Assembly: GCF_013170705.1 (NCBI RefSeq)
Contig: NZ_CP033334.1
Coordinates: forward strand, 6,735,501 to 6,799,500
Source: Mesorhizobium loti
Lineage (GTDB): Bacteria > Pseudomonadota > Alphaproteobacteria > Rhizobiales > Rhizobiaceae
Length of the DNA stretch: 64,000 nt
Direction of reading: 5' to 3'
Shown here: piece by piece, positions 28,612-31,691 of the stretch
Layout: each line of letters opens with the position of its first letter
Numbering within the stretch: position 1 is the first letter of the stretch
Position numbers and translations under genes: made by a program
The notes under the pieces: generated by a model
The model's input: only the letters and a program-made list of their open reading frames with translations
Database searches by the model: none
Told to the model about the DNA's origin: nothing

Positions 28612-30438
28612 TTACAGGATCCGCTTGCCGAAGGCCGACATGATGAAATTGACGGTATCGGTGCCGATCCTGGGCTCCAGATCCTTGGTCAGGCTAGAGA
28701 CATCCATCGACAGCAGGCCGCCGGACAGCGCGATCGCCTCCATCGCCTGATGCGTTTCGCGCACTGTCAGCCCGCCGGAGCCAGCAGCCCAGCCGGCGAA
28801 TTCGGTCGCTGTCGGCGAATAGCTGACATGAAAGCCTTGCGTGCCCGACGTGGCGATGCGGATCGCTTCATGCATCAGGTCGCGCATGCCCATGGCGTCG
28901 ATGTCGGTCATGGTGAAGGCCGACACCCGCGAATCCTTCAGCACCCGCGCCTCGGCCGGATCGGCATGGCGCAAGCCGACGATAACGACATTTTCCGGCG
29001 ACAGCTGCGGCTGCAGCGCGCCGGCCTTGTGGTCGAGCCCGAGCGCACGCGCCAGCACCGAGGCCTCCGGCAGATCGATGCCCTCTTCGTCCTCGGGCAT
29101 CAGGGCGGCGATGGAATCGATCCAGATCAGGCCGAAGGAGTGCGTCGCGCGCGCCGTCACGGTCAGCGCCTTGTGGACGACGCGACGGTCGGCGCCCGCG
29201 GTGAGACGGATCAGCCCCGAGGGGGGTCGCTCGACATCGGCCAGTTCGACGACGTCGAAATTCATCGCCTCCAGCCGCCCGCCCGTCCCCTCGCGGACGA
29301 GGATGCCGGCGGCTTCCGTTTCAGCCGAGATCGACACCATCTTGCGGCCGGAAAAGTCCGCGACGTCGTGCATCGGCGCCTTCTCGACATATTCCGAAGT
29401 CATCGCCAGCAGCATGGCGCCATAACTCATGCGGAAGGCGACGCGGTCGCCGACGGCGGGTGGCGGATCGGCATCCTGGACGTCGAGCAGCAGATGGTCG
29501 CTGGAGGCGCCGAGCACCCTTATCCCCTTGGCGATCGGCGTCAGCCCTTCGACCAGCACGTCCTCGCGGCCGATATTGGCGATGGCGCGCAGCCTGTCGC
29601 CTTCGTCGGGAAAGACCGGCTGGTTGCCGAAGGCGTCGTAGCCGGACTCGCCGATCGGCCGCGACGGCTTGAGCTTGACCTCGATGATGTCGCTGGTCAG
29701 CCGGCAGGCATCGGGTTCGAGTTCGGCCCATGGCATCTCGCGAAAAGTCTCGACGCCGCCTTGCAGGATAGCCTCGCCGACCCTGAGATTGTTGATGCCG
29801 GCGGGCAGCCTGCCCTCGAGCAGCAGCGTCAGCGACGACGAGGCACCGCCTGAGATCCAGTCGAGACTTTTGCCGGACAGGCGCTCGGTCTTGTAGGCGT
29901 GAGCGACGAGCTGGCCAAGATTCTCCGGCGTCGGCATGATGGCGCCGAAGCAGCCAAGATTGGTGCCGATGCCGGCTATGCGAACCCCTTTGAATTCGAG
30001 GATCTTCTCGACGGTGGGTATCAGGTCGCTCGGCCAGATGCCTTCACGGAGATCGCCGAGATCGATCATGAGCATGATGTCGTGGACGCGGCCCATGCGC
30101 TCGGCAATGCGCGAAATCTCGCGAATGGTGGCGAGTTCCGATTGCAGACTGATGTCGACGGTGCGCACCACCTCCTCGACGCGCGCCATGGGTGGGCTGC
30201 GCAGCAGCATGATCGGCGCGTTGATGCCGCTGTCGCGCAGCCGGCGGATGTTCTCGAAACGCGATTCGGCAATGCCGGCGACGCCGCCGCGCAGCATGGC
30301 GCGCGCCACTTGCGGCATGCCGCACATGCCCTTGGTGACGCCGAACACCTTGATGCCCGACAGCGCGCAGCGCTCGACGATGGTGCGGGCGTTGCGCTCG
30401 ATCCGGCCAAGGTCGATGGCGACTTGCGGTCCCGACAT
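28612..30438 (-). CDS. PLP amino-acid racemase fused to a metal-site-deficient arginase-like domain
   Basis: A 608-residue fusion. Residues 1 to about 365 form a fold-type III PLP domain of the ornithine-racemase/YhfX-like alanine racemase group: AIDLGRIERNA, the PLP lysine K36 in VFGVTKGMCG, LMIDLGDLREGIW, GTNLGCFGA, SGGASSSLTLLLEG and NNLRVGEAILQG. Residues about 366-608 resemble arginase/agmatinase and end in a family-like tail, GLTVRETHQAMEAI ... SAFGKRIL. In that part the GGDHS-type motif reads AGADRRV, the DAHAD-type motif reads WIDSIAAL, and the SxDxD motif reads VSYSPTA. At most one or two Mn ligands remain, so ureohydrolase activity is unlikely. It starts 2 bases after dadA on the same strand. 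Suggested role: racemisation with an amino-acid-sensing or scaffold domain. Confidence 0.85.
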   Translation of the reverse strand: MSGPQVAIDLGRIERNARTIVERCALSGIKVFGVTKGMCGMPQVARAMLRGGVAGIAESRFENIRRLRDSGINAPIMLLRSPPMARVEEVVRTVDISLQSELATIREISRIAERMGRVHDIMLMIDLGDLREGIWPSDLIPTVEKILEFKGVRIAGIGTNLGCFGAIMPTPENLGQLVAHAYKTERLSGKSLDWISGGASSSLTLLLEGRLPAGINNLRVGEAILQGGVETFREMPWAELEPDACRLTSDIIEVKLKPSRPIGESGYDAFGNQPVFPDEGDRLRAIANIGREDVLVEGLTPIAKGIRVLGASSDHLLLDVQDADPPPAVGDRVAFRMSYGAMLLAMTSEYVEKAPMHDVADFSGRKMVSISAETEAAGILVREGTGGRLEAMNFDVVELADVERPPSGLIRLTAGADRRVVHKALTVTARATHSFGLIWIDSIAALMPEDEEGIDLPEASVLARALGLDHKAGALQPQLSPENVVIVGLRHADPAEARVLKDSRVSAFTMTDIDAMGMRDLMHEAIRIATSGTQGFHVSYSPTATEFAGWAAGSGGLTVRETHQAMEAIALSGGLLSMDVSSLTKDLEPRIGTDTVNFIMSAFGKRIL

Positions 30439-30440
30439 GC

Positions 30441-31691
30441 CTAGCCTCCGTAGACCAGCCCCTGCGGGTCGATCTCCGGCTTGCGGCCGGCGACAAGGTC
30501 GGCCAGGAATTTCCCGGAGCCGCAGGCCATCGTCCAGCCGACATGGCCGTGGCCGGTGTCGAGATAGAGATTCTCATAGCGCGCCTGGCCAATGACCGGC
30601 ACGGAGTTCGGCATCATTGGCCGCAGGCCAGCCCACAACTCCGCTTTCTTCTCGTCGAAGGCGCCGGGAAAGAGATCCCTGGCGGTCCTGAACATGGTGG
30701 CAAAGTCGCTTGGCTTGTGGGTGCGGTCGAAGCCTGTGAATTCGGCGGTCGAGGCCAACCGCAAGCGATTGCCAAGGCGCGAATAGGCCATCAGCTGGTC
30801 CTCATCGGCGCCACCCATGGTCGGGCCCTTGCTTTCGTCTTCCAGCGGAATGGTCGCGGTGTAACCCTTCACCGGATAGACCGGCAGGTCGATGCCGTAC
30901 CGGCGGCCGAGCAGGCCGCTTTCCGGACCCATCGAGATAACCACCGCATCGCCTGAGACGGTGCCGGCGGAGGTCATCACCGCGCGCACCCGGCCGCCCT
31001 CGATGTCGAGGCCTTCGACCGTCGTGCCGTAGAGAAATCTCACGCCGAGCTTTTCGGCGGCATGGGCAGCGAGCTTCTCCACGAACTGCCGGGAATCGCC
31101 GGTCTGGTCGATCGGCGAGTAGACGCCGCCGGCGATCTTTTCCTTCACGCCGGCAAGGCCCGGTTCAAGCTCGACCAGCCGGTCGCGGCCGACGATCTCG
31201 ATCGGCAGGCCATGCTCGGCCAGGTATCGGTAATTGTCGGTGCCGGTGTCGAGACTGTGCTGTGAGCGGAAGAAATAGAGGATACCCTTCTTGCGCTCGT
31301 CATAGTGGATGCCGGTGTCGGCCGAGATGGCGTTGATGCACTCACGCGAATAGAGCGCCAGGCGTAGCTTGACCTGGCTGTTGGCGCGCAGGCGGGCCAC
31401 GGTACACTGGCGCAGGAAACGCAGGCTCCAGGCAAGGAAATAAGGATCGAAGCGCAGCCGCACCTTGATGCCGAGATCATGGTTGTAGAGCCCGCGCAGG
31501 AAGGTCTTCAGCGCCGCTGGCGAGGCCCAGGCGGTGGCGTCGCCCGGCGAAACCAGCCCGGCATTCGACTGGCTGGTGCCACGCGCCGGCGCCGGATGGC
31601 GCTCTATCACGGTGACCTCATGACCGTCGGCGGCCAGATAATAGGCCGCCGCCGTGCCGACGACGCCAGCTCCAAGCACCGTTATCTTCAT
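30441..31691 (-). CDS. dadA: D-amino-acid dehydrogenase small subunit (DadA-like FAD oxidoreductase)
   Basis: From the ATG at 31691 (GGGGGA 6 bases upstream) the product has 416 residues, the usual DadA length. It has the FAD-binding ITVLGAGVVGTAAAYYLAADGHEVTVIER type start, SNAGLVSPGDATAWASP, VYPVKGYTATIP, ELWAGLRPMMPNSVPVIG, and the C-terminal GHVGWTMACGSGKFLADL. It oxidises D-amino acids to keto acids, passing electrons to the respiratory chain. It precedes the racemase fusion by 2 bases, so the two likely form a racemise-then-oxidise catabolic unit. The upstream galE lies 103 bases away on the same strand. Confidence 0.93.
   Translation of the reverse strand: MKITVLGAGVVGTAAAYYLAADGHEVTVIERHPAPARGTSQSNAGLVSPGDATAWASPAALKTFLRGLYNHDLGIKVRLRFDPYFLAWSLRFLRQCTVARLRANSQVKLRLALYSRECINAISADTGIHYDERKKGILYFFRSQHSLDTGTDNYRYLAEHGLPIEIVGRDRLVELEPGLAGVKEKIAGGVYSPIDQTGDSRQFVEKLAAHAAEKLGVRFLYGTTVEGLDIEGGRVRAVMTSAGTVSGDAVVISMGPESGLLGRRYGIDLPVYPVKGYTATIPLEDESKGPTMGGADEDQLMAYSRLGNRLRLASTAEFTGFDRTHKPSDFATMFRTARDLFPGAFDEKKAELWAGLRPMMPNSVPVIGQARYENLYLDTGHGHVGWTMACGSGKFLADLVAGRKPEIDPQGLVYGG

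What the first reader, a model, noticed from the sequence alone, without database searches (positions are those of the whole stretch)
28612..31691. PLP racemase fused to a metal-less arginase-like domain, coupled to DadA
The sequence shows a 608-residue protein whose first ~365 residues carry a fold-type III PLP racemase (K36 in VTKG). The last ~240 end in an arginase-like tail (GLTVRETHQAMEAI, SAFGKRIL), but the places of GGDHS, DAHAD and SxDxD read AGADRRV, WIDSIAAL and VSYSPTA. At most one or two of the six Mn ligands remain. It begins 2 bases after dadA. Known family facts: arginases need both Mn ions; ornithine-racemase-type proteins act on basic amino acids. Inference: a racemase with a retired arginase fold as amino-acid sensor or scaffold, feeding D-amino acids to DadA.
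Basis: partly seen in the sequence, partly recalled or inferred. Interest (0 to 1): 0.78.

Follow-up and report, generated by a model that had tools for sequence, protein, structure and literature searches.

The report
Arginine racemase fused to dead arginase
A family of bacterial enzymes, mostly annotated as alanine racemases, carries an arginase fold whose metal site is gone while the residues where arginase subunits meet are kept; some members sit in arginine-breakdown gene clusters, so the dead domain probably assembles, and perhaps senses arginine for, a racemase.

Summary

D199/E256 match the pair that holds Arg308 in mammalian arginase, a region where free L-arginine binds in B. caldovelox arginase (PMC7925462). 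In 8 of 16 further clade-A genomes the gene lies behind AruI and/or guanidinobutyrase genes, pointing to arginine; in Mesorhizobium and Aminobacter only dadA is linked.

Best reading: an arginine racemase feeding DadA, with the dead arginase as assembly module and possible arginine sensor. Activity, oligomeric state and binding are untested.

The parts
28612..30438 (-). racemase / dead-arginase fusion protein, 608 aa
29374..30438 (-). racemase domain, residues 1-355 (PLP lysine K36 at 30331-30333)
   Evidence: PF01168 93.5 bits; NF040742 Orr 394.5 bits, below its cut-off of 480; lysine in 208 of 208 fusions with a letter there, 5 of 213 gapped
28615..29343 (-). metal-less arginase-fold domain, residues 366-608
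29185..29187 (-). R418 at the place of Mn ligand His99
   Evidence: Arg in 108/120 clade A and 90/93 clade B fusions
29116..29118 (-). D441, the only Mn ligand (D122) kept
   Evidence: 119/120 and 90/93
28897..28899 (-). D514 = B. caldovelox D199 (mammalian D204), subunit-contact residue
   Evidence: 118/120 and 92/93
28756..28761 (-). R560-E561 = R249-E250 (mammalian R255-E256)
   Evidence: 118/120 and 93/93; 119/120 and 93/93
28738..28740 (-). E567 = E256 (mammalian E262)
   Evidence: 119/120 and 93/93
30441..31691 (-). dadA-type D-amino acid dehydrogenase, 2 bases upstream, same strand
   Evidence: NF001933 461.9 bits, cut-off 383; adjacency

Best explanation
The protein is a PLP amino-acid racemase, most likely for arginine, that works with DadA at the head of an arginine breakdown route: L-Arg to D-Arg (this protein), D-Arg to 2-ketoarginine (DadA), then AruI, an aldehyde dehydrogenase and guanidinobutyrase to GABA. 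Its C-terminal domain is a former RocF-type arginase that can no longer bind two Mn ions; it is kept as an assembly module using the arginase subunit interface, and probably binds L-arginine (or another guanidino compound) in the interface pocket between D514 of one subunit and E567 of the next, so that assembly or activity follows arginine supply. Shown by computation: domains, predicted fold, loss of the metal site, purifying selection, grouping of the fusions, retained interface residues, operon context in other genera. Inferred: arginine as substrate, trimer formation, arginine binding, any regulation.
For: Fold. Ligand and catalytic loss against interface retention, 213 fusions versus 19 true arginases; of 21 charged arginase-conserved columns 5 are kept at 95% or more in both clades (D122, D199, R249, E250, E256). 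Interface and free-arginine region in arginase: PMC7925462 passages; papers on Glu256/Asp204 and on arginine activation of B. caldovelox arginase seen only as titles in reference lists. The Arg308 place is Ile607 here and Leu298 in B. caldovelox. Purifying selection. Fusions group together. Pathway: AruI NF005712 776.8 bits (cut-off 500); guanidinobutyrase P0359 520 bits to 3nio; same-strand order GbuA-AruI-ALDH-PRK06524-C45-DadA-fusion in 5 of 16 clade A genomes, partial forms in 3 more; ALDH-PRK06524-C45-DadA-fusion also in L052.
Against: No activity or binding data. The racemase domain is nearest to an ornithine racemase model and below its cut-off. Of the 65 genome-contig loci (mostly Mesorhizobium and Aminobacter), 63 show none of the queried pathway genes besides dadA within the fetched flanks of at most 6 kb, and AruI in none. 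In the window's own genome AruI lies about 450 kb away and no close guanidinobutyrase was found (best 48% identity); the six same-genus genomes without the fusion have AruI too. No D-arginine dehydrogenase is among the 12 solved sequences matched by DadA at E 1e-10. The retained interface residues would serve plain oligomerisation equally well. Lys605/Arg606 next to Ile607 could fill the pocket. E278, whose mutation breaks the B. caldovelox hexamer (PMC11271267 passage), falls in a gap in 209 of 213 fusions, so a hexamer of the known kind is not supported.
Confidence: 0.45

Rival explanations
1. Scaffold only: the dead arginase is a ligand-independent trimerisation module that multiplies racemase dimers into a larger D3 or cage-like assembly; no sensing.
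For: Interface residues retained in both clades while the substrate-binding residues checked are lost; mammalian arginases are trimers and B. caldovelox arginase a dimer of trimers (PMC6988801 passages).
Against: Does not by itself explain why the fold retained is one that binds arginine, beside arginine-pathway genes; an interface salt-bridge partner of the Arg308 kind is absent at its place.
Confidence: 0.35
2. Hetero-oligomer partner: as in metformin hydrolase (MetCaCb), the inert arginase domain assembles with an active ureohydrolase (guanidinobutyrase or agmatinase), joining first and last steps of the pathway in one complex.
For: An agmatinase-family gene lies directly upstream of the clade B fusion in 2 of 5 clade B genomes (G476, G922), and guanidinobutyrase is in the cluster of 7 of 16 clade A genomes; inert subunit precedent in PMC11271267 and PMC11399263 (passages).
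Against: The only ureohydrolase model matched by the dead domain is RocF arginase, while the neighbours are agmatinase/guanidinobutyrase type; 64 of 65 genome-contig loci show no ureohydrolase of the kinds queried in the flanks.
Confidence: 0.12
3. Ornithine, alanine or broad-range racemase; the arginine context is coincidental and DadA takes many D-amino acids.
For: Best curated model is ornithine racemase (394.5 bits); sources name it alanine racemase, ornithine racemase or predicted amino acid racemase; no arginine gene beside it in the window's genus.
Against: Below the Orr cut-off (480); AruI and/or guanidinobutyrase co-localised in five genera.
Confidence: 0.25
4. Vestigial tail: the arginase domain is a decaying remnant without function.
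For: Metal site and substrate loop lost; 3 of 65 loci look broken (L041, L060, L065).
Against: dN/dS 0.134, equal to the racemase part; fold predicted intact; interface charges near-invariant across two clades.
Confidence: 0.03

Closest known systems
RocF-type arginase (Bacillus caldovelox 1cev, Thermus thermophilus 2ef5)
   Different: five of six Mn ligands, E271, H139 and the substrate loop lost; fused behind a racemase
Ornithine racemase Orr / alanine-ornithine racemase family PLP-dependent enzymes
   Same: whole N-terminal domain, PLP lysine, and the stand-alone proteins end at the same border, mostly read MTSPFV.K
   Different: 394.5 bits, below the Orr cut-off of 480; extra domain; arginine-type gene context in some genera
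Metformin hydrolase beta subunit MetCb / MefH-beta
   Same: arginase-fold protein that lost most metal ligands but stays in use as a partner
   Different: MetCb is a separate subunit of an active ureohydrolase; here the dead domain is fused to a racemase
Trypanosoma brucei arginase-like protein without a Mn cluster (title seen in a reference list)
   Same: arginase fold without binuclear cluster
   Different: eukaryotic protein; not examined here
Pseudomonas D-arginine dehydrogenase (DauA/DauB) and arginine transaminase (AruH/AruI) routes
   Same: 2-ketoarginine as intermediate; AruI and guanidinobutyrase homologues
   Different: here a PLP racemase plus DadA would take the place of AruH or of DauA/DauB (AruH recalled; DauA/DauB from PMC5619798 passages)

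Membership tests
Arginase (RocF) | arginase alpha/beta fold | tested here: met
   predicted model against solved structures
Arginase (RocF) | six Mn ligands (H99, D122, H124, D126, D226, D228) | tested here: not met
   one of six in the window; 0-3 of six in 213 fusions
Arginase (RocF) | curated score cut-off TIGR01229 (227.6 bits) | tested here: not met
   67.7 bits
Arginase (RocF) | ureohydrolase activity | not testable with these tools
   needs assay
Ornithine racemase Orr (NF040742) | curated cut-off 480 bits | tested here: not met
   394.5 bits over 4-353
Ornithine racemase Orr (NF040742) | fold-type III PLP racemase domain with Schiff-base lysine | tested here: met
   PF01168; lysine in 208 of 208 with a letter there; Foldseek alanine racemase hits
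Ornithine racemase Orr (NF040742) | ornithine racemisation | not testable with these tools
   needs assay
MetCb-like pseudo-ureohydrolase | loss of three to five of six metal ligands | tested here: met
   window protein lost five of six; definition from PMC11271267 passages; one of 213 fusions lost all six
MetCb-like pseudo-ureohydrolase | separate subunit forming a heterohexamer with an active ureohydrolase | tested here: inconclusive
   it is fused to a racemase, not a separate subunit; neighbour ureohydrolase in some genomes; complex formation not testable
DadA (NF001933) | curated cut-off 383 bits | tested here: met
   461.9 bits

The most novel reading that the evidence does not exclude
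The arginase interface region that binds free L-arginine in B. caldovelox arginase has been taken over as the sensor of a different enzyme: the catalytic site was erased in the common ancestor of the fusions, and the domain now makes an arginine racemase assemble or switch on according to arginine supply, so that D-arginine is made only when arginine is plentiful.
Probability: 0.3. Interest if true: 0.85.

Novelty: new variant of a known kind. Interest (0 to 1): 0.68.

Why it matters
Dead enzyme domains are common and mostly unexplained. Here one can be read: more than two hundred natural homologues, catalytic and interface residues separated cleanly by conservation, a probable single origin, and in some genera a metabolic context that names the likely ligand. 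It also suggests a racemase-dependent arginine-to-GABA route in Hyphomicrobiales behind proteins now mostly called alanine racemase, and gives a direct test of whether the arginase interface arginine site is a functional regulatory site.

Tried and rejected
Search for a fusion with an intact arginase: a bait made of a stand-alone racemase and a true arginase gave only proteins of 365-433 residues with the racemase domain alone among the 120 best of 1993 hits; an intact fusion from a distant racemase subfamily could lie below the list, so this is negative for close relatives only. The searches from the window protein and from the divergent P0121 gave no protein with more than three ligands among those aligned; these are the top 120 of each list, not the whole family.

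Reading the clade B neighbour (P0122) as proof of a MetCaCb-like complex was rejected: it is an agmatinase-type enzyme with an ordinary metabolic explanation, and it is beside the fusion in 2 of 5 clade B genomes. A plain co-occurrence argument for AruI was rejected: all eight clade A genomes of the order draw have it, but so do the six same-genus genomes without the fusion; only gene neighbourhood is used. G476 (clade B) has no AruI match. The class draw of 385 genomes showed no full-length match outside the window genome, with at most three candidates scored a genome; the order draw of 397 showed nine, the window's included.

Papers: the listings showed no description of the fusion or of an arginine racemase in such an operon (searches returned nothing); I read titles and abstract starts there, and passages of PMC11271267, PMC11399263, PMC12267995, PMC7925462, PMC8322407, PMC6988801, PMC3197605 and PMC5619798. 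Subscription papers are not held. Human arginase numbering (D204, E256, E262) was mapped to B. caldovelox by spacing and recall, not by a tool; R255 as an interface residue is recalled, and so are the roles of H139, E271 and the substrate loop.

Full report
What is there. The minus-strand ORF 28612-30438 encodes 608 residues and starts 2 bases after dadA, on the same strand. Residues 8-224 match Ala_racemase_N and 411-584 match Arginase above the Pfam cut-offs. The nearest curated racemase model is ornithine racemase Orr, below its cut-off (394.5 against 480 bits); the only ureohydrolase model matched is RocF arginase, far below its cut-off (67.7 against 227.6 bits). Among solved structures the C-terminal part matches Bacillus arginase best (1cev, E 4e-17).

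Metal site. I aligned the C-terminal parts of 213 fusions (the window, L109 and 211 proteins of at least 540 residues from the lists) with 19 true arginases (18 from fetched genomes plus the 1cev fragment). Clade A (120) and clade B (93) were assigned by whether a protein is more like the window or P0123. Ligands kept in A and B: H99 8 and 0; D122 119 and 90; H124 8 and 1; D126 about 2% and 4%; D226 0 and 24; D228 6 and 0. E271 is kept in 1% and 0%, H139 in none. Per protein, 163 keep one ligand, 48 two, one three, one none. H99 is replaced by arginine in 108/120 and 90/93; an Arg418-Asp441 salt bridge in place of the metals would explain why D122 alone stays, but that is inference.

What is kept. 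D199 118/120 and 92/93; R249 118 and 93; E250 119 and 93; E256 119 and 93. Of the 21 charged columns conserved in arginases, five are kept at 95% or more in both clades: D122 and these four. In human arginase I Arg308 bonds Glu262 of its own chain and, in rat, also Asp204 of the next subunit; in B. caldovelox arginase, which lacks Arg308, L-arginine was bound in the same interface region (PMC7925462, introduction passages). The mapping D204 = D199 and E262 = E256 is by spacing and recall. Papers on Glu256/Asp204 and on arginine activation of B. caldovelox arginase were seen as titles only. The fusion has Ile607 where Arg308 would be; 115 of the 117 clade A tails scored end four residues after the FG, but Lys605 and in most Arg606 lie close. 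Against a hexamer of the B. caldovelox kind: E278 falls in a gap in 209 of 213 fusions.

Selection and origin. In 55 ungapped orthologues (window plus 54 of L001-L062; eight dropped: L029, L041, L050, L051, L052, L055, L057, L060) dN/dS, as ratio of means over 1485 pairs, is 0.133 for residues 1-355 and 0.134 for 386-608. A tree of 95 racemase domains (24 of clade A, 27 of clade B, 44 stand-alone) puts the 51 fusions in one group (97/92), with clade A at 100/100 and clade B at 100/99; it is rooted at the midpoint for drawing only and has some long branches. So one fusion event is likely, and the losses shared by both clades are likely old. Stand-alone racemases end where the fusion's first domain ends.

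Context. dadA is next to the fusion, same strand, in 60 of the 62 genome-contig loci that hold upstream sequence (65 loci; L029, L055, L063 are cut; L050 and L051 lack it). In G627 the order is amino-acid permease, Usp, AruI (776.8 bits, cut-off 500), aldehyde dehydrogenase, PRK06524, C45 hydrolase, dadA, fusion. Of 16 further clade A genomes, five have the series with guanidinobutyrase (G1074, G982, G501, G530, G578; the permease lies inside the fetched stretch only in G530 and G578), G627 has it with guanidinobutyrase elsewhere in the genome, G1036 has GbuA-AruI-dadA-fusion, G716 GbuA-dadA-fusion, five only dadA (G1001, G971, G1066, G1023, G689), and three none of the queried genes besides the fusion in the fetched stretch (G856, G989, G931). 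The eight linked genomes fall in five genera. The guanidinobutyrase of G578 (P0359) scores 520 bits to 3nio guanidinobutyrase against 309 to guanidinopropionase. Of five clade B genomes, an agmatinase-type gene lies directly upstream in G476 and G922, not in G981, G1033, G805 (G805 has a GbuA-like gene, 45%, about 7 kb off on the other strand). These steps fit L-Arg to D-Arg to 2-ketoarginine to 4-guanidinobutanal to 4-guanidinobutyrate to GABA (pathway knowledge recalled; DauA and 2-ketoarginine in PMC5619798 passages).

Limits for the window itself. Of the 65 genome-contig loci, mostly Mesorhizobium and Aminobacter with flanks of at most 6 kb, only L047 (GbuA) and L052 (ALDH, PRK06524, C45) show a queried pathway gene besides dadA, and none shows AruI. 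In G000 AruI is at 348314-349885, about 450 kb from the fusion if the single contig is circular, next to an arginine-deiminase-family gene, and no close guanidinobutyrase is found (best 48%). The six same-genus genomes without the fusion also have AruI. So arginine as substrate in Mesorhizobium rests on homology and the conserved dadA-fusion pair, not on a local operon.

Interpretation. The racemase, the loss of the Mn site and the retention of the interface residues are well supported. That the domain assembles the protein is likely. That it binds arginine is the bold step: the pocket's acidic residues are kept, the ligand is the likely pathway substrate, and precedent for inert arginase-fold subunits exists (PMC11271267, PMC11399263 passages), but nothing here measures binding.

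Noticed in passing
L065:6001-6219: In this Mesorhizobium the fusion matches only over codons 1-54 and the next gene follows directly while dadA is intact, apparently a natural deletion; L041 and L060 look frameshifted.
   Followed up: partly
L026, L032, L037, L049, L053, L056, L004 (and L103) between dadA and the fusion: A related non-coding-looking stretch of 354-379 bases separates dadA from the fusion in 7 of 65 loci, against 30 bases or fewer in 51; copies are 77-98% alike.
   Followed up: partly
L133:3289-5838: A PRK06524 'biotin carboxylase'-named protein and a C45 acyltransferase/hydrolase lie between the aldehyde dehydrogenase and dadA in six genomes and in L052; their role in arginine use is unexplained.
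   Followed up: no
window 29185-29187 and 29116-29118 (R418, D441): Mn ligand His99 is replaced by Arg in 198 of 213 fusions while D122 stays, perhaps a salt bridge in place of the metals.
   Followed up: no
L149:6312-8818: In the window's own genome the AruI frame overlaps or abuts a gene of the arginine deiminase / amidinotransferase family.
   Followed up: no
L057 end and L063 start: Two contigs of one assembly break at fusion residues 372 and 368, near the domain border; could be assembly or an insertion.
   Followed up: no
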